A stretch of DNA of 50,288 bases from a virus. Below the pieces are notes generated by a model. The model saw only the letters and a program-made list of their open reading frames with translations, was not told where the DNA came from and made no database searches. Numbering within the stretch: the stretch's first letter is position 1; each line of letters starts with the position of its first letter. Location of the stretch: positions 1-50,288 of IMG/VR virus record IMGVR_UViG_3300025135_000008. One strand, 5' to 3'. The position numbers were made by a program, and so were the translations under genes. Positions 4,626 to 23,096 of the stretch are shown in pieces.

Positions 4626-4920
4626 GACGGTTTCCGAAAAACGGCCCTTGGTATGACTGCGATCTTACGATATTACGCTTCTTACGCTTACAGCGCAGGT
4701 ATAGCCCCCCCACACACACACACACAGTATAGTAGTACAAAAAGTAGTACATATTCTCTCTTTCTTGTATGTATGTCTTTAAGTGTAAGAAGTGTAAGAA
4801 AATAGGGACTCCCCTTGCGCCGCAGTCGATTTCGGTCTTACACTAGGTGTAAGAAGGTGTAAGAAATCTCGGCAAATCCCTGTAATCCCTTGGTATGACT
4901 GGTAATTTGCTGTAAGAAAA
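4565..4920 (+). repeat. Iteron-like GTGTAAGA repeat cluster, candidate replication origin
   Basis: This covers the only stretch above 300 bases without a gene (4626-4982). GTGTAAGA occurs at 4620-4627, 4783-4790, 4792-4799, 4847-4854 and 4857-4864, with an inverted copy TCTTACAC at 4836-4843 and a variant CTGTAAGA at 4910. CTTACG/TTACG runs occur near 4601 and 4665-4686. A 15-bp direct repeat, CCCTTGGTATGACTG, lies at 4645-4659 and 4887-4901. A CA dinucleotide run (4711-4726) and three GTAGTACA copies (4570, 4732, 4744) sit between. Position beside a P4-alpha-like primase suggests an origin or copy-control region bound by that protein. Confidence 0.6.
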
Positions 4921-4982
4921 CCCGTAACACCCACTTTTCCACTGGCTGGGTCCGCCAGCCTGTTTTCAGCCTCCCCGAAGCC

Positions 4983-5720
4983 ATGCGAAACATCAACTTC
5001 AACGCCCAGTCGATCCTTGGTCGAATCAACGCCATCGAGAGCACTCAGATCCGGTATGCGGGCACCCAGTCGATGAAGCGGCTTGGCTTTCAACTGCGCA
5101 ACGAGTTGTCCAAGGCGATGGCCAAAGATTTCAACAACCCGGTGCCGTTCACGCTCAACTCGCCCCTGTCTCTCGCCAATGGCTTGAGCGTGGTCATCAG
5201 TATCAACGCCGACCTTGGCGGGAAGGGCCAAGAGGCAGCGACGTACCTGTACCCGGTGAGCACGCAGGACAGCCGTGGCCGTAAGCCTGCGTATGCGACT
5301 CGGTTCCAGCGTGGCTTGTGGGAGCTGGGTGTGATACCACGCAACAACTACGTGCTGTCGTGGCTGCCTGGCGCGAGCGTGCCGCGCAACAGCTACGGGA
5401 ACACCTCAACGGGGTTTTTACAGGCAGTGCTGCAGGGGCTGAAGAACGAGGGAGGGCGCCTGAAGGACCCCAAGAGCGTCTACGGGGGCAATACGCGCTA
5501 TTTCAGCCAGCCTGACAACCGAAGGGCCGTCAAGGGGCCTTCTAGGCTCTCTCCGGGCATCTACCGCGTGAAGGGCAACCAGCTCGACCGGCTTTTCGGG
5601 TACGTGGACAGACAGCCGACGGTGCCGACCAAGTTTGACTTCGAGGGAATTGTCCGCAACAAATCAGCGGATTTGCTGCCGGGAATTTTGCGCCAAGAGC
5701 TTGACCGCGCTATGCGTTAG
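4983..5720 (+). CDS. Putative minor tail / tail-completion-like protein
   Basis: The 245-residue protein has an N-terminal helix rich in QLRNELSKAM, then FNNPVPFTLNSPL, a strand-rich middle with AATYLYPV, and a C-terminal part with FQRGLWELGVIPRNNYVLSW and NSYGNTSTG. This order (a PTxFTxNS-type motif, a YLxPQ-type motif, a KRFExAL-type helix and a YGN motif) is recalled from phage proteins annotated as minor tail or hypothetical structural proteins. No enzyme motif is seen. If that reading is right it is out of place, because all other virion genes lie on the minus strand beyond 19900. The start ATG at 4983 follows the repeat-rich gap; the ligase-like gene follows 32 bases after its stop. Confidence 0.5.
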   Translation: MRNINFNAQSILGRINAIESTQIRYAGTQSMKRLGFQLRNELSKAMAKDFNNPVPFTLNSPLSLANGLSVVISINADLGGKGQEAATYLYPVSTQDSRGRKPAYATRFQRGLWELGVIPRNNYVLSWLPGASVPRNSYGNTSTGFLQAVLQGLKNEGGRLKDPKSVYGGNTRYFSQPDNRRAVKGPSRLSPGIYRVKGNQLDRLFGYVDRQPTVPTKFDFEGIVRNKSADLLPGILRQELDRAMR

Positions 5721-5752
5721 CTGTAGTATTCCAAGCAGTTACCGCTTACCCG

Positions 5753-6448
5753 ATGCCAACCGTTACCGCGAAAGCCCTTGCTATCACTGCCGATGCTGCG
5801 TACAGGGCTGGGCGACCTGTGATGACCGATGCAGAGTTTGATGCCTTGGGCGTGGTGGTTCCATGCGCTGGGCGAGTGCTGTTGAGCTTGGACAAGCGAC
5901 CGATGGACGAGTGGCGGTGCCGTGAGATGGGGCCGTACACGGTGACGGGGAAGGTGGACGGTTGCGCGATTGCGCTTGCGTATGTGGGTGGCCGCCTGCA
6001 GGGTGCATGGACGCGAACAGGACGCTGCGCAATGCACGTGGCAACGCTTGTTGCCTCAGTGCCGCCCAGGATCGCCTCTAAGGCCCCTGTAACCCTCCGT
6101 GGGGAGCTGTATGGCCTAGATGGCCGCCAGAGCACCCCAGCAGCCTCTCTGAGGCGCAAGGCACCCAGCGGCGACGGTTTGGCCTTTGTGGGCTACGAGG
6201 TGCTGGGCAGCGCGGATGACCACAGCAAGCAACTGTGGTGGCTGGAGGGGCAGGGTGTTGACGTGCTGCGGTGGTGGCATTGCGCGAGTGCAGCGCAGGT
6301 GGTGAAGCTGCACCAGCGATGGCGAAACGGCGAGCTGTGGGCCGGGGTGCCAACAGATGGGATTGTTGTTCGGGTAGACGACGGCAATGCGTGTATGCAA
6401 ATGGGGCATGATGGCCGGGTGCCGCGTTACGCCATGGCGATGAAGTGA
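5753..6448 (+). CDS. Minimal NAD+-dependent DNA ligase adenylation domain
   Basis: The 231-residue protein matches the nucleotidyltransferase core of LigA-type ligases: YRAGRPVMTDAEFDAL at the N-terminus (like the Ia-region YxxxxPxxSDxEYD), KVDG with the adenylated lysine at about K67, TRTGR where LigA has TRGDG, LRGELYG (motif III), TDGIVVRV (motif IV) and PRYAMAMK (motif V). It lacks the OB fold, zinc finger, helix-hairpin-helix and BRCT domains of full LigA (about 670 residues). It may seal nicks with help from another protein, or only form an enzyme-AMP. Its stop overlaps the next gene as TGATG. Confidence 0.75.
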   Translation: MPTVTAKALAITADAAYRAGRPVMTDAEFDALGVVVPCAGRVLLSLDKRPMDEWRCREMGPYTVTGKVDGCAIALAYVGGRLQGAWTRTGRCAMHVATLVASVPPRIASKAPVTLRGELYGLDGRQSTPAASLRRKAPSGDGLAFVGYEVLGSADDHSKQLWWLEGQGVDVLRWWHCASAAQVVKLHQRWRNGELWAGVPTDGIVVRVDDGNACMQMGHDGRVPRYAMAMK

Positions 6449-9757: not shown

Positions 9758-10207
9758 ATGCTTGCTTGTTGCCCCGAGTGCAGCGCAAATGCTGGCGTGG
9801 TAATGAGGACTCGCGTGCTGCGTAACGATACCCGGCGCCGCCGTTACGAATGCCGCTCATGCGGCCATCGGTGGACGGTAGTAGACGGTGAAGTGCCAGC
9901 ACGCCTTCATCCACAGCGCGACCGTAGCAAGCCTGTCAGCCGCAAGGGATTTGACGTTGAGGCTGTGGAAGCAATTCTGACTTCACGCGAAAGCGACGGA
10001 GCGATTGCCGAGGCTTACGGTTGCACGCGCCAGGCAATCAACCAGCTACGGACCGGGAGAACGCATGCGGAGGTGCTGCCAGAGCTGCCGCGACGTGGTG
10101 CAGTTTTGTGCTACAGTTGCAAGCACTGGAGCAAGGACCGGTGTGGGTTTGACCTACCCGAGGCCGGAAGTCCAGAATCTACCGATTGTAATTATTATGA
10201 CCGATGA
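9758..10207 (+). CDS. Zinc-ribbon and helix-turn-helix protein
   Basis: The 149-residue protein opens with a zinc ribbon (CPEC near residue 5 and CRSCGHRW near 32-39), similar to the NrdR or transposase-type ribbon. A helix-turn-helix-like stretch follows (DGAIAEAYGCTRQAINQLRTG, about 80-100). A C-terminal second cysteine module (CYSCKHWSKDRCGF ... DCNYYDR) ends it. The layout suggests a DNA-binding regulator or a homing-type accessory. The terminal CxxCxxW...C...C module recurs in two other small proteins of this window. Its end overlaps the next gene by 11 bases. Confidence 0.65.
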   Translation: MLACCPECSANAGVVMRTRVLRNDTRRRRYECRSCGHRWTVVDGEVPARLHPQRDRSKPVSRKGFDVEAVEAILTSRESDGAIAEAYGCTRQAINQLRTGRTHAEVLPELPRRGAVLCYSCKHWSKDRCGFDLPEAGSPESTDCNYYDR

Positions 10208-10389: not shown

Positions 10390-10527
10390 ATGCAACCCAA
10401 ACGCTTTTATTTTCAAGTTAACAATTGCTTTGATTTTGTCTGGGCAGTGAGCCGTGTCGAGGCACAGCACAAGCTAATGTACTCCAAGTACGCACCCCTT
10501 TACCGGTACATCCAATGGCTAGCTTGA
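10390..10527 (+). CDS. Small hypothetical protein (45 aa)
   Basis: This short frame begins MQPKRFYFQVNNCFDFVWAV five bases after the previous stop and ends RYIQWLA, overlapping the disrupted gene that follows by 13 bases. The tight spacing on both sides and the protein-like composition support a real gene. No function can be assigned. Confidence 0.5.
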   Translation: MQPKRFYFQVNNCFDFVWAVSRVEAQHKLMYSKYAPLYRYIQWLA

Positions 10528-10640
10528 ATTACAACGTTCCCAAAGAAGACCAAAGCTGCGGCAACTGCTATTACGCGGAAATGGATGCGCTCGCCATGGG
10601 GGACGGTCCTTTGACCTGCCACCATTCTTTCGCCAGGGAG

Positions 10641-10660
10641 CCTCGCCCTTCAGGGCGGGG
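10641..10660. repeat. IS605 left-end hairpin
   Basis: CCTCGCCC-TTCA-GGGCGGGG forms an eight-pair stem with one T-G wobble and a four-base loop, 25 bases inside the proposed left boundary. Single-strand end hairpins of this kind are recognised by TnpA. The tnpA stop codon lies within it. Confidence 0.8.
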
Positions 10661-11069
10661 AGGAATGGCCTTCAGGACGATCCTGCTCAGCGATGTAGCG
10701 CCTGAGCGTTTCGATGGTGGCGCCGCCAGCACTTGAAGCGAAGTAGCTCGGACTCCAAAGGTGCTCGCCGTGCGGACGCAAAGGGAACTCCTTTCGCAGC
10801 ATCCGACTGGACACTCCCTTGAGCGCGTTGACCAGGGCCGACACCGCGATGGCGGGCGGGTACTCGACCAGGAGGTGAACGTGGTCCGCCTCGCCGTTGA
10901 ACTCCAGCAGCTGGAAGCCCATCTTCTCGGCAACACCTAAGCAGACCGCCTCCATCCGCTCAAGGTGCTCAGCCGTCAGTACCGCTCGCCTGTACTTAAC
11001 GACGAAGACCAAGTGGACAACCAGTCTGGAAACACTGTGCCTGCCTCGTCTGAGCGGTTGCTGTGCCAT
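10650..11069 (-). CDS. tnpA: IS200/IS605 Y1 transposase TnpA
   Basis: The 139-residue protein has the HUH motif HVH at about residues 63-65 (ADHVHLLVEY) and the nucleophile tyrosine at about Y125 (TLRRYIAEQ). Length and motif order are typical of IS200/IS605 Y1 transposases, which excise and insert single-stranded DNA at replication forks. All catalytic residues are present, so the element is probably still mobile. It starts at ATG 11069, 29 bases from the divergent tnpB start, leaving only a very short shared promoter region. Confidence 0.93.
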   Translation of the reverse strand: MAQQPLRRGRHSVSRLVVHLVFVVKYRRAVLTAEHLERMEAVCLGVAEKMGFQLLEFNGEADHVHLLVEYPPAIAVSALVNALKGVSSRMLRKEFPLRPHGEHLWSPSYFASSAGGATIETLRRYIAEQDRPEGHSSPP

Positions 11070-11098
11070 TACAGACCAATAGTGGTATGGTGATTGGT

Positions 11099-12301
11099 AT
11101 GCAACTACGGTACCGCTACCGCTGCTACCCCAGCCCCGCCCAACAGCAGGCCCTGTCCCGCTCGTTCGGCTGTGCTCGGGTTGTCTGGAATGACGCCCTA
11201 GCCCTGAGCAACAAGCTCTATGGCGAAGGGCAGAAGTATCTAGGCGGTTCGGCGTTGATGGCCCTGGTCATCACCAACGCCAAGCGGACACCGGAACGGC
11301 AGTGGCTGGCCGACGCATCCCATTCGATGCTGCAGCAGTCAGTGCGCGACCTGGACCGCGCCTTCCGCAACTGGTGGGGTTCACTTACCGGCAAGCACAA
11401 AGGCAAAGCCAGGGCACCGCGTTTCAAGAAGCGGAGCAACGACCAGAGCATCCGCATCTGTGGCAAGGAGTTCCGCGTCACAGATAAAGGCGTCCGCTTC
11501 CCCAAGGTGGGCGATCTGCGTCTGGTGTGGTCCCGCCCGCTGCCAGCGGTGCCTTCCTCCTGCACCCTGATCAAGGATGCGGCAGGGCGGTACTTCGCCA
11601 GCTTCGTTGTGGAGGTGGACCGACCCCAGTTGGAGGCCAACGGCAACACCGTGGGCATCGACCTGGGCCTGACAACCTTCGCCACGCTCAGCACTGGCGA
11701 GAAGGTAGATGCGCCCAAGCCCCTGCGTGCTGCCCTCAAGCGGTTACGCAAGCTGCAGCGCAACCTCTCCCGCAAGACCAAAGGGAGCAACCGCCGCAAC
11801 CGTGCGCGGATTCAAGTGGCGCGGCTTCACGCCCGCATCGCTGACACCCGCAAGGACTTCCTCGGCAAGCTCAGCACTCGCATCATCCGTGAGAACCAAA
11901 CGGTGGTGCTTGAGGATCTGAAGGTCTCGGGGATGATCCGCAACCGGAAGCTGGCCCGCTCTATCGCGGATGCAGGCTGGCGGCAGTTCCGCCTGCTGCT
12001 TGAATCCAAGGCCCTGATGTATGGCCGCACGGTCAACATCATCAGCACCTGGGAGCCAACCTCTCAGCGGTGCTCAGCCTGCGGAGAGCTGGGCGGCAAG
12101 AAGCCGCTGAACATCAGGGCGTGGACCTGTCTGCACTGCGGTGCTGAACACGATAGGGACATCAACGCCGCCAACAACATCGCCGCCGCTGGACAGGTGG
12201 AGGCGCAAAACGGACGTGGAGCCAGGCATAAGACGGGTTCGCCCGCTGCAGGCTGTGAAGCGTCAACCCAACAGGGGAGCAAGCAGCTATGCCTGCTCTG
12301 A
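11099..12301 (+). CDS. tnpB: TnpB RNA-guided nuclease of IS605 element
   Basis: The 400-residue protein begins MQLRYRYRCYPSPAQQQALS, the usual TnpB N-terminus. The RuvC triad is complete: D188 in GIDLGLTTFATL, E272 in VVLEDLKVSGM and D354 in HDRDINAANN. A zinc finger with four cysteines (CSACGELGG ... CLHCG) precedes the last aspartate. TnpB proteins cut DNA guided by an omega RNA made from the right end of the element, which helps retain it. The ATG at 11099 is chosen over in-frame ATGs at 11063 and 11087. The gene ends 10 bases before the right-end hairpin, as expected for a 3' omega RNA overlap. Confidence 0.93.
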   Translation: MQLRYRYRCYPSPAQQQALSRSFGCARVVWNDALALSNKLYGEGQKYLGGSALMALVITNAKRTPERQWLADASHSMLQQSVRDLDRAFRNWWGSLTGKHKGKARAPRFKKRSNDQSIRICGKEFRVTDKGVRFPKVGDLRLVWSRPLPAVPSSCTLIKDAAGRYFASFVVEVDRPQLEANGNTVGIDLGLTTFATLSTGEKVDAPKPLRAALKRLRKLQRNLSRKTKGSNRRNRARIQVARLHARIADTRKDFLGKLSTRIIRENQTVVLEDLKVSGMIRNRKLARSIADAGWRQFRLLLESKALMYGRTVNIISTWEPTSQRCSACGELGGKKPLNIRAWTCLHCGAEHDRDINAANNIAAAGQVEAQNGRGARHKTGSPAAGCEASTQQGSKQLCLL

Positions 12302-12356
12302 CTGGGAATCTCCGGCCTTCAGGCCGGGGAGGATGTCAATCTTGCTCTCCATCGTT
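12180..12356 (+). ncRNA. Candidate omega RNA scaffold and guide
   Basis: In characterised IS200/IS605 elements the tnpB 3' end and right end are transcribed as an omega RNA whose last about 16-20 bases come from flanking DNA. By analogy the scaffold would end at 12339 after the right-end hairpin, and the guide would be 12340-12356 (TCTTGCTCTCCATCGTT). The 5' limit given is arbitrary. Evidence is positional only. Confidence 0.4.
12311..12328. repeat. IS605 right-end hairpin
   Basis: TCCGGCC-TTCA-GGCCGGG forms a seven-pair stem (one T-G wobble) with the same TTCA loop and following GGAGGA as the left-end hairpin. It lies 11 bases before the proposed end of the element at 12339. Confidence 0.8.
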
Positions 12357-12456
12357 GGTTGATGGCGATTCAGCGCGATGGCCGGTTGTGCTTCCGCATT
12401 ATTGGTGTGGAGAATGGGGGCCAATGATGTAGGATTTACTCGTCGCATTTGATTTT

Positions 12457-12768
12457 ATGTCTGTTTTTGAAAAAGTCACCATTGACGAAGTACGCACGCG
12501 GACCATGCGTCGCACTAAAACGTCTCCGCTGCGTGAGCAAATTCTTGCCATGAAGCTGGGTGATGCCATCTTCGTGCCTTTTTACAACCCTGAAACCGGC
12601 GAAGGCTTCAAGCAGCCAACCATCAACCAAGTGGCTGGCAATCTTGGCCGCGACAGCGCTGAATTGCGGTATTGCGTCCGCAAGGACATGACACGTAACG
12701 GAGCGTTTGTTGTGTGCATGACCCGCGAAGGGGAAGGCAAAAAGCGCGGCCCCAAGCCCCGCAAATAG
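12457..12768 (+). CDS. Hypothetical basic protein (103 aa)
   Basis: The product begins MSVFEKVTIDEVRTRTMRRT, includes MKLGDAIFVPFYNPETGEGF, and ends in a basic tail GKKRGPKPRK that contains an AT-hook-like RGPKPRK. The middle shows a helix, PTINQVAGNLGRDSAELRY, that could be helix-turn-helix-like. A DNA-binding role is plausible but no family is recognised with confidence. It is the first intact early gene after the insertion element and precedes the next gene by six bases. Confidence 0.6.
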   Translation: MSVFEKVTIDEVRTRTMRRTKTSPLREQILAMKLGDAIFVPFYNPETGEGFKQPTINQVAGNLGRDSAELRYCVRKDMTRNGAFVVCMTREGEGKKRGPKPRK

Positions 12769-13179: not shown

Positions 13180-13330
13180 TTTCATGCGTTGCATTGCTGA
13201 GGAGCTGGCAATAGGTTTCGCAAGTGCGATAGAGCATACCTTCGCGTTCTGTCATGCTGCGAGCTGTGGTTTCAGCCTCCAGCTCGCGAGTCAGGTTTTG
13301 TTTTACTTTTATCCATTCCATCAGAATCAT
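13103..13330 (-). CDS. Possible antisense coiled-coil small protein
   Basis: This minus-strand frame of 75 residues fills the 148-base gap between the previous gene and thyX and overlaps both ends. The product, MILMEWIKVKQNLTRELEAE and onward, is a plausible coiled coil with MRLELLVDDLKLQL near the C-terminus, and its codons look protein-like. It is alone on this strand between plus-strand genes and has no clear Shine-Dalgarno. The opposite plus-strand reading is weaker. Treat as tentative. Confidence 0.4.
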   Translation of the reverse strand: MILMEWIKVKQNLTRELEAETTARSMTEREGMLYRTCETYCQLLSNATHEIMRLELLVDDLKLQLAPTQNQGPHA

Positions 13331-13961
13331 GATTACAAAGCTTATTCATGTTACTCCAGACGCTGAGCGTTTGATTGTCAAGATGGCCAGGGTGTCAGCC
13401 CCTGACAATCAAGACAACTGGGAGACCGGCCCCAAGCTGTTGCGTTACCTGATCAAGCACAAGCACTGGAGCCCGCTAGAGATGGCAAGCATGTGCGTTG
13501 AGATTGAAACAGAGCGTGACATTGCGGCGCAAATTTTGCGTCACCGGTCATTTAGCTTCCAAGAGTATTCAACGCGCTATGCCAAAACGTTTCCGGCGGA
13601 GATGCCAGCAGTGAGACGACAGGATGCGGCAAATAGGCAAAACAGTATTGATGATTTTCCCGCATCAGCGAAGGCCGCTTGGGATGTTGCAATTGGCAAG
13701 CAGCTAACCGAAGCGTATGCCTTGTATCAGAAAATGCTAGATAGCGGTGTCGCGAAAGAATGCGCTCGTCGTGTGCTGCCATTGTGCACACCAACAACGC
13801 TTTTTATGCACGGAACGCTTAGGAGCTGGGTGCATTACATCGAGTTGCGGTCCAGTGAGGGAACGCAGCTTGAGCACAGACAGATTGCGCTAGAATGCAA
13901 AAATCTATTTTCTAAACAATTTCCAATTATTGCCGCTGCTGCGGGTTTTACTTATGATTGA
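13329..13961 (+). CDS. thyX: Flavin-dependent thymidylate synthase ThyX
   Basis: The 210-residue protein carries the ThyX signature RHR-x7-S as RHRSFSFQEYS at residues 71-81, with the upstream KHKHWSPLE segment and a C-terminal LRSSEGTQLEHRQIA that matches the conserved substrate-binding helix. ThyX makes dTMP from dUMP using FAD, NADPH and methylenetetrahydrofolate. The start at 13329 (MITKLIHVTPDAERLIV) fits the family; the upstream extension does not. With dNMP kinase and dCTP deaminase nearby it completes a phage thymidine supply route. Its stop overlaps the next small gene by eight bases. Confidence 0.93.
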   Translation: MITKLIHVTPDAERLIVKMARVSAPDNQDNWETGPKLLRYLIKHKHWSPLEMASMCVEIETERDIAAQILRHRSFSFQEYSTRYAKTFPAEMPAVRRQDAANRQNSIDDFPASAKAAWDVAIGKQLTEAYALYQKMLDSGVAKECARRVLPLCTPTTLFMHGTLRSWVHYIELRSSEGTQLEHRQIALECKNLFSKQFPIIAAAAGFTYD

Positions 13962-14347: not shown

Positions 14348-14887
14348 ATGCATAAATTAATTGGCCTTTATTCTCCAGCTCCACAATCAGGAAAAAGCAC
14401 CGTTGCTGGTGTGCTTGCTTCTAACGGCTATCAAACGGTGCCATTTGCGTTGACATTGAAAGAAATGCTGGTGCCAATGCTTTGCGCGTTGGGTTACCGC
14501 CAAGACGAAGCGTGGAGGCTTGTAACCGTTGAAAAGGAGTACAAGCTGCCTGAGGTCGGCGTGACCGTTCGACACATGATGCAGACCCTGGGGACTGAGT
14601 ATGGCCGCCAATGCATCCACCCAGCGGTATGGCTGACCTGTTGGCGCAAGCGTGCGCAATTGCATGAGATGGTGGTAGCCGACGACTGCAGGTTTAAAAA
14701 CGAAGCTGACCTGATTCGCCAGCTTGGCGGCGAAATCTGGTGCGTGATTAGGCCAGACGCTTGCCTAGAAACAAAGCACGCAAGCGAGGGCGGCTTGGAT
14801 AAATACGAATTTGACAGGTACATCATTAACGATGGACCGCTGAGCCAATTAACGGGTAGAGTACAGGCAGCATTGCAAATTGAGTAA
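14348..14887 (+). CDS. Deoxynucleoside monophosphate kinase
   Basis: The 179-residue protein has a P-loop GLYSPAPQSGKST at residues 6-18 and the family segment VVADDCRFKNEADLIRQLGG in the second half, as in T4 gp1-type dNMP kinases. These enzymes phosphorylate dTMP, dGMP or modified dNMPs to diphosphates. Substrate choice cannot be read from the sequence. Together with ThyX it would feed dTTP synthesis. It overlaps the next frame by eight bases. Confidence 0.85.
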   Translation: MHKLIGLYSPAPQSGKSTVAGVLASNGYQTVPFALTLKEMLVPMLCALGYRQDEAWRLVTVEKEYKLPEVGVTVRHMMQTLGTEYGRQCIHPAVWLTCWRKRAQLHEMVVADDCRFKNEADLIRQLGGEIWCVIRPDACLETKHASEGGLDKYEFDRYIINDGPLSQLTGRVQAALQIE

Positions 14888-15191
14888 GTTGAGCTTGCGG
14901 TATCACGCTGGTCGAATGGTACTCTATGAAGTACCAAACGGCTGGCGTGTGCGCATTAAAACGCGAACAGGCAAGCTGGACTTACCGCTTGGCGGAGCGA
15001 CGCTTGAGCTTTGCGTAATCGAGGCGGAGCAATTGTACGCAGACGCCAGGGGAATTACAAACACAAAGCCAATGTGTCAGCAATGTACGCATTGGCAATT
15101 TGTAAAAGCAGAATGCGGGATTGGGTTTCCAGAGGGGCGATCAAGCGGCGGAAAATTTGCCAAGTTGTGCTCAGCGTACTGGCCTGACTAA
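14880..15191 (+). CDS. Small cysteine-module protein (about 103 aa)
   Basis: From TTG at 14880 the product begins MSKLSLRYHAGRMVLYEVPN; an ATG further in (MVLYEVPNGW) is an alternative start. The C-terminal half holds CQQCTHW, then CGIGFPEG and CSAYW, a four-cysteine module with a tryptophan. This resembles the end of the zinc-ribbon protein at 9758-10207. The module probably binds zinc. It is the last plus-strand gene and its TAA overlaps the minus-strand HNH gene end by four bases. Confidence 0.6.
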   Translation: MSKLSLRYHAGRMVLYEVPNGWRVRIKTRTGKLDLPLGGATLELCVIEAEQLYADARGITNTKPMCQQCTHWQFVKAECGIGFPEGRSSGGKFAKLCSAYWPD

Positions 15192-15823
15192 TCTGGCGGT
15201 TCGATGCCAGTCCAAACTTCAATTAAGTCTTCGCGATCTTGCGTCCAAAACGCTTGATTTCTAAGCCATTCGTAGACCGATTGACTGGATTTTGATCCAT
15301 TGCAACTGCGGCAGCATGCGACTAAATTTTGCTTGATTGTAAGGCCACCTTTTACGCGGGGCACTACATGATCAAGCGTGTCAGCGGGATCGCCGCAGTA
15401 TGCGCAATGGTGGTCCCATGCTTCAAAAATTTGCTTGCGAAAACGATGCTTGGTTACTTTTTTAGGAACCAGTTCTGCGCCATGAATTGAATGGTTGATG
15501 TACCCGCCCTCCAGTTCGTGACATTGGATTGAAAAGTCAACAATTTCTTCGGTAAGCTCTTCGATTCTTGAGGCAACATTATCAACAAGCTCGTCAGGGT
15601 CTTGGTTGCCGTCAGAACTTGTCAAGAACATAATTTTTGCAATGTTAAGCCACCGTTTTTTAACAACAAAGCAGGGTTCTTTGTTTTTTGAAAACATCAA
15701 ACCAATAGGGCAGTCACCAGGATTGCAAATCCATGCGCCTTCTTCTGAGCGATGTAGCTTGCTTGTTGGAAGCGTGGCTCTGCAGCTTTTGTGCCGTCTG
15801 CATTGCCGAAGTTGATCGTCCAA
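15188..15823 (-). CDS. HNH endonuclease
   Basis: The 211-residue protein carries a C-terminal HNH_5-type core: CAYCG at 140-144, DH at 151-152, N166, then CCRSCNGSK at about 170-178, with two zinc CxxC pairs. The N-terminal half is cysteine-rich (CRATLPTSKL ... CNPGDCP near 33-38) and may be a second zinc or DNA-binding part. HNH proteins in phages act as homing nucleases or packaging cofactors; this one is far from the terminase, so a free-standing homing role is more likely. It is the first minus-strand gene past the early/late convergence. Confidence 0.82.
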   Translation of the reverse strand: MDDQLRQCRRHKSCRATLPTSKLHRSEEGAWICNPGDCPIGLMFSKNKEPCFVVKKRWLNIAKIMFLTSSDGNQDPDELVDNVASRIEELTEEIVDFSIQCHELEGGYINHSIHGAELVPKKVTKHRFRKQIFEAWDHHCAYCGDPADTLDHVVPRVKGGLTIKQNLVACCRSCNGSKSSQSVYEWLRNQAFWTQDREDLIEVWTGIEPPD

Positions 15824-15856: not shown

Positions 15857-16372
15857 TTAACCCTTGGAGGCTTTAACCCCTTGGTCATTGTTATAGCGAC
15901 CAGTTACTTGATATGTCTTATTTGGAATAGAGGCCATTTCCATAAAAACAAATTGCCCAATTTTTAGGCCGGGGTAAAGCGGCAAATTATGGTATCGACG
16001 GCTGTTGTGCAATTCCAATGTCAGCGAGCTTCCGGTCCAACCTGGGTCCGCAAAGCCAGCTAAAAGATTTTCGTAACCCTCGCGTGCGCGACTGCTTTTA
16101 AGTACAAATTGGGCGCAAATGTTGTCTGGAATGCTAAACATTTCCTTGGTTTGCGCAAGGACAAATTCAGACGGCGCCAACCAGTAAGGAGCTTCTTTTG
16201 TGCAATGCGCAATTGATTGAATTTGCAGTTCTGGCGTATGCTCAGTTTCAACCATAATTTGATCACCTAACAGCAAATCAAGCGAAGCCGGGTTAAGCAA
16301 GTTTTCGTTATATGGCGTTACCATGTTTGCGGTAAGGCACAAATGACGAATTTGATGATCAGCTAAAATCAA
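15857..16372 (-). CDS. dcd: dCTP deaminase (Dcd/dUTPase family)
   Basis: The 171-residue protein begins MILADHQIRH with a TTG start, matching the family N-terminus. The core SSRAREGYENLLAGFADPGW (about 93-112) and LTLELHN (E120 as the likely catalytic Glu) are the Dcd trimer active-site segments. The C-terminus NNDQGVKASKG fits the family tail. The enzyme deaminates dCTP to dUTP; some members also cleave dUTP to dUMP. No separate dUTPase gene is seen, so a bifunctional enzyme would best connect to ThyX. It lies on the opposite strand from thyX. Confidence 0.88.
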   Translation of the reverse strand: MILADHQIRHLCLTANMVTPYNENLLNPASLDLLLGDQIMVETEHTPELQIQSIAHCTKEAPYWLAPSEFVLAQTKEMFSIPDNICAQFVLKSSRAREGYENLLAGFADPGWTGSSLTLELHNSRRYHNLPLYPGLKIGQFVFMEMASIPNKTYQVTGRYNNDQGVKASKG

Positions 16373-20423: not shown

Positions 20424-23096
20424 TTAGTACCAACGGCCAATAATAAACAGAAAAAAAGCAGTATTTGTCGAGTTGCTACGGTTTATTTGAACGTTCATTC
20501 CCGTTGTCGTGTGAGTGCTTAGTGTTATGTTTGTTGCGGTTAGTGGGACTGAACTATCAAGTGTGCCTTGAGCACTGTACAACATGCTGCCGCCCGCAGT
20601 TGAAGTAACCGCTGCGTCTACAAATGTGACAGGATGAGTTATTGCTGTTGTATTAACGCCTGACGCAGTTCTGGTTTCAACGCCATACATAAAAGCGTGT
20701 TGAGTACCATCAGCATACTTCACAAACCGCCCGTTTGCGTTTGTTCCTTGCTCTATAATACCAGGCTCAAGGTGCAGCGTGCCAGACGCATAGTTTGTTA
20801 TAGGTCCAACAGCATTACGTCTAGTCAGTACATGAGCGTCGTTCCAGAGCCAATAGTGACCATCCCAGGTGGTATCAACAGTATAAAAATCAATGGTTGG
20901 ATCATTTATTGATAATCCAGAGTAAATAAACCCAGATGGGTCAGGAGTACCGTCGTAAGCATCAAGATCCGTTAATTCTACTTTCGTAAAAGCTAAGGGT
21001 TCGTCAGTACGAAGTCCGGTAAAACGACCGTGCCCAAATCTAATAGGCGATCCAAGAGCAGAAGAGGTATTTTGCAATCCGATGTATTCAACCCCGTCCA
21101 TACGGAATTGAACTAACCTCATGCGAAGGTTAGAGTCATTTCTTTGGATCTGGTAATTTGCTCTACGGCTGTCATTACTAGCAACAGCATAGTCTAAAAC
21201 AAGCCTAGTCGAACTAGTATTTGTTGTTATGGTAGCAAAACTCCGGTTAAGAACAAGTTCTCCCCTAAATAGGGTATTGGGTGCTCTAGCCTTACACAGA
21301 AGAAGAATGTCGTTTTGTTCAATCTCTAGAGGGAGGACAATTTCTCCAGCGTAATAAGTACCCTGATCTGTCGTAGTGGGACCCCTTAGTCCGCCATCGC
21401 CTGTAAGAATGCCTTCAACTGTCGTATTTCCAATTTCATCAACAATAATTTGTTGAGTGCCATTAGTTGAGATGCCTACGCTGTTTGCGGCAGGTAGATA
21501 AATGCCATTTGTCGGTGCGGTGCTGCCAGTTGGGATCAGGCTGGCGGCAGTGCTGGTGCCAGTGGTGACGACGTTTTGGCTGCCAAAGTTCGGGCTGATC
21601 TTGGTGCCAGCGATCGCAGCGCTGGCGTTGATATCTGCATCGACGATCACGCCCGATGCGATCGAGGTGGCGATGCTTGCACCACTGGTCAAATCACTGC
21701 TGACCGTACCAGTCACATCTCCGGTGACTTCGAATGTACGGCTGCTGTCGAGCTTCGTTGCAGTTGCAGCATTGCCGGCAGTGTCTTGATTGCCTGCAGT
21801 ATTAACGCCAGGCAGGTTGATATTGGCAGTGCCGTCAAATGACACGCCGCCTATTGTGCGTGCAGTCTCAAGAGCTGTTGCAGTGCTGGCGTTACCCGTC
21901 AATGCGGCGGTAATGGTGCCAGCCGTGAAGTTCCCCGAGCCATCACGCGCCACAATGGCGCTAGCGGCGTTGGTGGCAGTGGCGGTGGTAGCACTGTTGC
22001 TGACTTTACCGCCAGTGGCGATGGTCGCAAGCTTGGTGTCAACAATGCCCGCGCTGGCATTGATGTCGGCGTTGACAATGGTGCCGTCTTTAATCATGGT
22101 GCTGGTAACAGTGCCAGTTTGCGCTGTTGTGATAACAGTGCTATCAACATCAACAGTTACAGCGCCATCGGCATTTGTAATGTCAATGCCAGTGCCACCA
22201 GTCAGCGTTGATTTGGCAAGTGTGCCATCAGTTTTACCAATTAGCAGCTCACCATTGGCGTAGGTGGTTTGTCCAGTGCCGCCCTGTGCAGTAGCAACTG
22301 TAGTAAATCCTGTGCCGATGGCTCCACCGGTTAAGGTGCCGACGCTTGTAAGACTACTGCTGGTGACACCACTACCTAGGCTGCTACCCGTCAGCACATC
22401 AGCGTTGTTGATTTTATAGCTTTTACCTGTTGCAAGGTCTACGTTTTCGCTGCTAGTCCAACTATCAGTTGCATCCACCCAGTTAATTGTCTTATCAGTA
22501 GTGCCTTTTAGCGTGATGCCACCACCATCGGCAGTAGTGTCTGTTGGGCTGGTAACTTTGCCAAGCTCAATGTTTTTATCTTCAACCGTCAGCGTCTGCG
22601 TATTGATAATTGTCTCAGTACCATTAACCGTCAGGTCGCCTTGCACCGTCAAGTTGGCGTCAAATATTGCATTACCAGTTACATCTAGCGTACCGGGAAT
22701 GTCAATATTACTAGCCCATTCAACGCCATCGCCATCAGCATTGGTTTGCAGCAATTGGCGTGCGGTGCCAGCCAGCAGCTTTGAAACTGGCAAGTCATCA
22801 GGCAGTGTGGACACCCAGGCACTGCCATCCCATACCTTGAGCTGCTCAGGGCTAACGCCAATATCTAGCCAAAATTCAGATTTGCTATTGCCCGAGGTGC
22901 CGCCAGACGCGGGCGTGGAATTAGGAGCAGTCGCACCAATATGGACAGGGCCAATTTTAACCAATGCGCCAGCTTCATCCTTAAAAAACAATCCAGGACT
23001 GCCGCTTTCGTAATTAACAGCAAGCTGACCAACAGCCATAATGGCCGGATCAGGTCTTTTGTTGGCGGTGCCAGTACGCAGGTGCTTAAGTGCCAT
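20424..23096 (-). CDS. Long tail fibre protein (890 aa)
   Basis: The protein begins MALKHLRTGTANKRPDPAIM and is rich in Gly, Thr, Ser and Ala with repeated short motifs such as VTGNAIFDANLTVQGDLTVN and GTANINLPGVN, typical of trimeric tail fibres. The N-terminal 100 residues resemble virion-attachment parts of cyanophage fibres. The C-terminal about 250 residues (from the ILTGDGGLRGP region) are less repetitive and likely form the receptor-binding head. It follows a 150-residue fibre-associated gene by a 45-base gap. Host specificity probably depends on it. Confidence 0.8.
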   Translation of the reverse strand: MALKHLRTGTANKRPDPAIMAVGQLAVNYESGSPGLFFKDEAGALVKIGPVHIGATAPNSTPASGGTSGNSKSEFWLDIGVSPEQLKVWDGSAWVSTLPDDLPVSKLLAGTARQLLQTNADGDGVEWASNIDIPGTLDVTGNAIFDANLTVQGDLTVNGTETIINTQTLTVEDKNIELGKVTSPTDTTADGGGITLKGTTDKTINWVDATDSWTSSENVDLATGKSYKINNADVLTGSSLGSGVTSSSLTSVGTLTGGAIGTGFTTVATAQGGTGQTTYANGELLIGKTDGTLAKSTLTGGTGIDITNADGAVTVDVDSTVITTAQTGTVTSTMIKDGTIVNADINASAGIVDTKLATIATGGKVSNSATTATATNAASAIVARDGSGNFTAGTITAALTGNASTATALETARTIGGVSFDGTANINLPGVNTAGNQDTAGNAATATKLDSSRTFEVTGDVTGTVSSDLTSGASIATSIASGVIVDADINASAAIAGTKISPNFGSQNVVTTGTSTAASLIPTGSTAPTNGIYLPAANSVGISTNGTQQIIVDEIGNTTVEGILTGDGGLRGPTTTDQGTYYAGEIVLPLEIEQNDILLLCKARAPNTLFRGELVLNRSFATITTNTSSTRLVLDYAVASNDSRRANYQIQRNDSNLRMRLVQFRMDGVEYIGLQNTSSALGSPIRFGHGRFTGLRTDEPLAFTKVELTDLDAYDGTPDPSGFIYSGLSINDPTIDFYTVDTTWDGHYWLWNDAHVLTRRNAVGPITNYASGTLHLEPGIIEQGTNANGRFVKYADGTQHAFMYGVETRTASGVNTTAITHPVTFVDAAVTSTAGGSMLYSAQGTLDSSVPLTATNITLSTHTTTGMNVQINRSNSTNTAFFLFIIGRWY

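What the first reader, a model, noticed from the sequence alone, without database searches (positions are those of the whole stretch)
10515..12427. IS605 insertion whose removal exactly restores a gene
Deleting 10616-12339 joins TTTGAC to TCTTGC and gives an open 62-codon frame. Flanking TTTGAC and terminal TCAA agree with IS200/IS605 single-strand insertion rules. This gives exact element borders, a likely target motif (TTTGAC or TTGAC) and the empty-site sequence without any comparison.
Basis: partly seen in the sequence, partly recalled or inferred. Interest (0 to 1): 0.72.

Follow-up and report, generated by a model that had tools for sequence, protein, structure and literature searches.

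The report
IS605 transposon splitting a cyanophage gene

Summary
The window is a virus contig related to freshwater Synechococcus phage S-LBS1. It holds a complete IS605-type element: intact Y1/HUH tnpA, divergent intact tnpB, subterminal hairpins. The right border, ...GATGTCAA|TCTTGC (12339|12340), is confirmed by two 92-94% identical copies in other viral contigs and by 31 viral stretches with the same right end. Two independent lines put it at 10622|10623. (1) The disrupted gene has about 80 relatives. All 67 complete distinct ones read CxxC...C-x3-[A/S/P]-P, and of the in-frame junctions tested only 10622|12340 gives that spacing (CHSCSP). (2) Under the IS608 guide/cleavage-site rule, guide GGAG pairs fully only with CCAC (10619-10622). 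The rule also fits 9 of 10 Micromonospora copies, including one compensatory change. The element is therefore 10623-12339 (1717 bp), the target CCAC, and the empty gene 66 codons. No exact empty-site record was found. Known mechanism; low novelty.

The parts
10515..10622 (+). 5' part (36 codons) of the interrupted small zinc-ribbon gene: MASLNYNVPKEDQSCGNCYYAEMDALAMGDGPLTCH
   Evidence: tblastn of S-LBS1 A41 hits 10548-10628; family alignment A1; HMM scans
10619..10622 (+). inferred target / left cleavage site C_L = CCAC, kept in the left flank
   Evidence: only upstream tetranucleotide with 6/6 Watson-Crick score against guide GGAG; junction gives the conserved C-x3-[ASP]-P spacing
10623..12339 (+). 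whole IS605-type element, 1717 bp
   Evidence: left border from protein-family spacing plus guide pairing; right border from diverging identical copies
10637..10640 (+). left guide G_L = GGAG, directly 5' of the LE hairpin
   Evidence: position by analogy with IS608 (PMC5934647)
10641..10660 (+). LE subterminal hairpin CCTCGCCC-TTCA-GGGCGGGG (8 bp)
10650..11069 (-). tnpA, 139 aa Y1 HUH transposase (HVH motif, C-terminal Tyr in RRYIAEQ)
   Evidence: Pfam PF01797 1.3e-39; NCBIfam transpos_IS200 9e-41; PDB 2f4f 6.8e-23, ISHp608 TnpA 2a6m 2.2e-18
11063..12301 (+). tnpB, up to 412 aa, with residues aligning to the RuvC motifs and zinc ribbon of ISDra2-type TnpB (true start may be ATG 11087 or 11099)
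   Evidence: Pfam; NCBIfam guided_TnpB 1e-100; PDB 8h1j/8bf8 E 7e-67 and 8e-67, with GIDLGL, LEDL, HDRD aligned
12306..12309 (+). right guide G_R = GAAT, identical to IS608
   Evidence: PMC5934647
12310..12329 (+). RE subterminal hairpin CTCCGGCC-TTCA-GGCCGGGG
12336..12339 (+). right cleavage site C_R = TCAA, last 4 bases of the element
12340..12432 (+). 3' part (30 codons plus stop) of the interrupted gene: SCSPSLVDGDSARWPVVLPHYWCGEWGPMM*
   Evidence: tblastn of S-LBS1 A41 hits 12373-12417 in this frame
12340..12355 (+). predicted TnpB guide segment (flank next to RE), TCTTGCTCTCCATCGT
   Evidence: inference from ISDra2 reRNA anatomy (PMC8612924); not tested

Best explanation
A 1717-bp IS605-type element (10623-12339) inserted as a single-strand circle 3' of CCAC in a small phage zinc-ribbon gene. 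TnpA binds the LE and RE hairpins. LE guide GGAG pairs with target CCAC, and RE guide GAAT pairs with TCAA. Excision by TnpA would seal CCAC to TCTTGC and restore a 66-codon gene ...GPLTCH|SCSPSLVDGDSARWPVVLPHYWCGEWGPMM. TnpB, guided by RE plus the flank TCTTGCTCTCC..., could cut such an empty site so that repair copies the element back. Shown here: element identity, right border, left border by convergent inference, intact-looking tnpA and tnpB, and disruption of a conserved phage gene. Inferred from IS608/ISDra2 biochemistry: the transposition pathway, the TnpB role, and current activity.
For: Right border: copies L002 and L003 (92-94%) share ...GATGTCAA and diverge at the next base; 31 viral stretches, those two records included, carry the same RE end. 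Gene: S-LBS1 A41 matches both sides of the element in the frame given by 10622|12340; 67 of 68 distinct relatives carry C-x3-[ASP]-P (the other is truncated), which only junction 10622 restores among 10619/10622/10625/10628; HMM maximum at 10622 in two models. Nine of 10 Micromonospora LEs score 6/6, and L174 has both guide and target changed (GGAA with CCAT; the others that score 6/6 have GAAA or GAGA with TCAT); L167, L163, L054 and L084 also score 6/6 with TCAT. RE GAAT:TCAA equals IS608. Proteins.
Against: No empty-site relative at DNA level was found: an exact scan of viral contigs for junction 10625|12340 gave nothing, and the 10622|12340 junction was not itself scanned. The reconstructed protein is only 33% identical to S-LBS1 A41. 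Junctions 3-6 nt away (10619, 10625, 10628) are also in frame and score 50-53 bits; CCAT|TCTT (10625) fits the guide with one G.T wobble and resembles the TCAT of relatives. In L003 more than one upstream site fits the rule (CCCT and CCAT). Copy L002 lacks a recognisable matching left end. Activity is not shown.
Confidence: 0.88

Rival explanations
1. Left border is 10625|10626 with target CCAT (a TCAT variant) and a 1714-bp element; empty protein ...TCHH|SCSPSL...
For: In frame; CCAT resembles the TCAT target of many related elements; guide score 5/6 with a G.T wobble; HMM 45.2 and 51.2 bits
Against: Breaks the C-x3-[ASP]-P spacing found in all 67 complete relatives; lower HMM score than 10622; guide pairing imperfect while the overlapping CCAC is perfect; spacing to the hairpin 15 nt against 16-20 in the related left ends
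Confidence: 0.1
2. One reading: target TTTGAC/TTGAC, border 10615|10616, 1724-bp element, 62-codon empty gene.
For: The sequence TTTGAC is present and the deletion leaves an open frame; a TTGAT target is known for ISDra2 (PMC8612924), so a TTGAC-like target was reasonable a priori
Against: Product scores 12.9 and 15.9 bits, below the unexcised ORF; it loses the conserved third Cys and the WPVV..WCGEW tail; guide score 3/6
Confidence: 0.01
3. The element is real but decayed or immobile: a relic rather than an active transposon. (This concerns activity and is compatible with the borders given above.)
For: Sister copy L002 has an altered left end and a weaker RE guide score, 4/6
Against: tnpA and tnpB are full length with catalytic motifs aligned; both hairpins and both guide/site pairs are intact; GC 60-65% against about 50% in the phage suggests an origin outside this phage
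Confidence: 0.2

Closest known systems
IS608 (Helicobacter pylori; C_L TTAC/G_L AAAG, C_R TCAA/G_R GAAT)
   Same: tnpA plus tnpB, subterminal hairpins, identical RE guide and cleavage site (GAAT/TCAA), LE guide directly 5' of the hairpin obeying the same pairing pattern
   Different: Different LE guide (GGAG) and target (CCAC); carried by a cyanophage; 18 nt from cleavage site to LE hairpin instead of 19
ISDra2 (Deinococcus radiodurans)
   Same: Y1 TnpA plus TnpB; TnpB aligns nearly full length with ISDra2 TnpB (8h1j, 8bf8)
   Different: ISDra2 uses the pentanucleotide TTGAT and has overlapping tnpA and tnpB; here the genes diverge and the target is a tetranucleotide
Copies in IMGVR_UViG_3300032293_001960 (L002) and 3300044547_002034 (L003)
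   Same: 92-94% DNA identity and identical right end
   Different: Different insertion sites; L003 lacks a tnpA match; L002 has an altered LE
Synechococcus phage S-LBS1 gene A41 (for the interrupted gene)
   Same: Uninterrupted small protein CxxC...C-x3-[AS]-P...WP.V...WCGEW
   Different: Only 33% identical; different neighbourhood

Membership tests
IS200/IS605 family, IS605 group | Y1 HUH transposase TnpA | tested here: met
   PF01797 1.3e-39; NF033573 9e-41; solved IS200/IS605 TnpAs including ISHp608
IS200/IS605 family, IS605 group | accessory tnpB | tested here: met
IS200/IS605 family, IS605 group | subterminal hairpins at both ends | tested here: met
   LE and RE hairpins 10641-10660 and 12310-12329, conserved at homologous ends; the fold energies alone are not exceptional against shuffles (z -0.49 and -1.63)
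IS200/IS605 family, IS605 group | insertion 3' of a fixed tetra/pentanucleotide, no target-site duplication | tested here: inconclusive
   Target CCAC by guide pairing and gene reconstruction; no empty-site sequence or second CCAC insertion available
IS200/IS605 family, IS605 group | guide/cleavage-site pairing at LE and RE | tested here: met
   GGAG:CCAC and GAAT:TCAA both 6/6
IS200/IS605 family, IS605 group | single-strand circle excision by TnpA | not testable with these tools
   needs biochemistry
TldR (nuclease-dead phage TnpB relative) | loss of RuvC catalytic residues | tested here: not met
   GIDLGL, VLEDL and HDRD align with the active nuclease

The most novel reading that the evidence does not exclude
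Natural relatives of this element change insertion target by single-base drift of the four-base LE guide (GAAA:TCAT, GGAA:CCAT, GGAG:CCAC), so a lineage retargets itself while keeping the same RE pair GAAT:TCAA. TnpB, whose TAM need not follow, may then be unable to recut the new donor joint.
Probability: 0.4. Interest if true: 0.4.

Novelty: new member of a known kind. Interest (0 to 1): 0.22.

Why it matters
It corrects the borders, target and empty-site sequence of a phage-borne IS605 element. It also shows a usable method: conserved spacing in a family of small phage zinc-ribbon proteins, combined with the IS608 guide rule, locates a single-strand transposon border that an open-frame argument misplaces. 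The guide/target covariation among relatives supports the IS608 rule outside Helicobacter and gives a testable prediction of natural retargeting.

Tried and rejected
Empty site by exact DNA pattern for junction 10625|12340 in viral contigs: none. Relatives of flanking gene 12457-12768: none. First Zn-protein query: none. Close element copies in 400 Cyanobiaceae-type genomes: none close, best 69%; LE pattern in 386 genomes of the phylum: none. Empty site of a Micromonospora copy in 151 genomes of its genus: only short chance-like matches. Left borders considered and dropped: 10615 (family HMM, guide), 10628 and 10631 (spacing, guide), 10625 (kept as main rival). I first took TCAT/CCAT as the target (note) and revised it after reading the IS608 pairing rule and testing the spacing. 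Rfam: no match at gathering score; the weak HgcC and sot0042 hits cover the IS ends and lie far below threshold. Pfam and PHROGs: no significant match for the restored protein.

Full report
What is there. The window is a 50,288-base virus record. Its terminase is closest to that of freshwater Synechococcus phage S-LBS1 (45.6% identity), and several other genes also match S-LBS1 (67% for the VRR-NUC homologue), so the host is probably a picocyanobacterium (inference). Between 10.6 and 12.34 kb lies an IS605-type element with tnpA on the minus strand (10650-11069) and tnpB on the plus strand (11063-12301). Both match Pfam, NCBIfam and solved structures strongly. TnpB keeps the residues that align with the RuvC motifs and zinc ribbon of active TnpB, so it is not a TldR-like dead version. 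The element has about 60-65% GC, the phage around it about 50%.

Right border. Viral loci L002 and L003 carry copies 92-94% identical at DNA level. All three share ...CTCCGGCCTTCAGGCCGGGGAGGATGTCAA and differ from the next base on. Thirty-one viral stretches, those two records included, contain the same end, nearly all followed by different DNA.

The gene. S-LBS1 has an intact 60-codon gene, A41. Aligned relatives share CxxC, a third Cys, a Pro, WP and WCGEW. A scan with the alignment returned 80 viral loci; of 68 distinct proteins, 67 have C-x3-[A/S/P]-P after the CxxC motif and the 68th is truncated before CxxC. With the right side fixed at 12340, every left border from 10585 to 10669 was scored against an HMM of seven relatives, and 10595-10659 against one of 68. 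The maximum is 10622 in both (49.0 and 55.9 bits). Of 10619, 10622, 10625 and 10628 only 10622 restores C-x3-[ASP]-P, as CHSCSP.

The guide rule. In IS608 the cleavage sites (TTAC left, TCAA right) pair with tetranucleotides 5' of each hairpin (AAAG, GAAT); A+16 pairs with T-3 and A+17 with T-4 (PMC5934647). From these sequences I infer that guide base 1 pairs with -3, base 2 with -4 and base 4 with -1; the last pair is my reading of the two IS608 ends. In the window the RE has GAAT and TCAA, identical to IS608. The LE guide is GGAG (10637-10640); between 6 and 29 nt upstream of the hairpin only CCAC at 10619-10622 gives three Watson-Crick pairs. This argument does not use the protein family and picks the same base. 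As a check, ten Micromonospora left ends with divergent flanks carry TCAT (nine) or CCAT (one) 19 nt before the hairpin; nine of ten score 6/6, and the CCAT copy (L174) is the one whose guide is GGAA instead of GAAA or GAGA (one TCAT copy has GCAA and scores 4/6). L167, L163, L054 and L084 pair GAAA or GAGA with TCAT; L003 pairs GGAA with CCAT, though CCCT also fits there. With this border the window element begins CATTC and that of L003 CATTT.

Mechanism. The best reading is standard single-strand peel-and-paste transposition: TnpA cuts after CCAC and after TCAA, seals the donor, and the circle inserts 3' of another CCAC. TnpB with a guide from the right flank (TCTTGCTCTCC...) would cut an empty copy, by analogy with ISDra2 (PMC8612924). 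None of these activities was tested. As it stands, the interrupted gene would be read into the element as a 73-codon chimera (10515-10736) without the WCGEW tail.

Limits. No empty-site DNA was found; only one candidate junction was scanned for, and not the preferred one. The left border therefore rests on two convergent inferences rather than on direct comparison; I put it at about 0.88, with 10625 as the only serious rival. The finding is a new member of a well-known family; an IS200/IS605 tnpB in a cyanophage has been reported before (PMC7431792).

Noticed in passing
L002 record (IMGVR_UViG_3300032293_001960), 20689-22375 and 5518-5551: The same phage contig that carries the 92% copy also holds a second, diverged tnpA/RE pair and a solitary RE-like hairpin of 34 bp, so it has several IS605-derived segments.
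   Followed up: partly
L111 around 9213 and L112 around 1911: Viral contigs with near-perfect palindromes of about 40 bp, TTGACATCCTCCCCGGCC-TTCA-GGCCGGGGAGGATGTCAA, that look like two right ends face to face.
   Followed up: no
window 9758-10207 and 14880-15191: Two further small Cys-rich proteins that both match S-LBS1 A39, apparently sharing a C-terminal half.
   Followed up: no
window 15188-15823 (-): HNH-type protein with weak similarity to the HNH region of IscB/Cas9d (E about 1e-11 to 1e-12, well below family cut-offs).
   Followed up: no
L003 (IMGVR_UViG_3300044547_002034) about 4800-6271: Copy with tnpB and both hairpin ends but no match to tnpA, apparently dependent on TnpA in trans; it sits near the end of a gene whose frame is restored by joining CCAT to CGGCTC.
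   Followed up: partly
window 13254-13961 and 15857-16372: ThyX (about 59% to Synechococcus phage ThyX) and a dCTP deaminase near the insertion.
   Followed up: no
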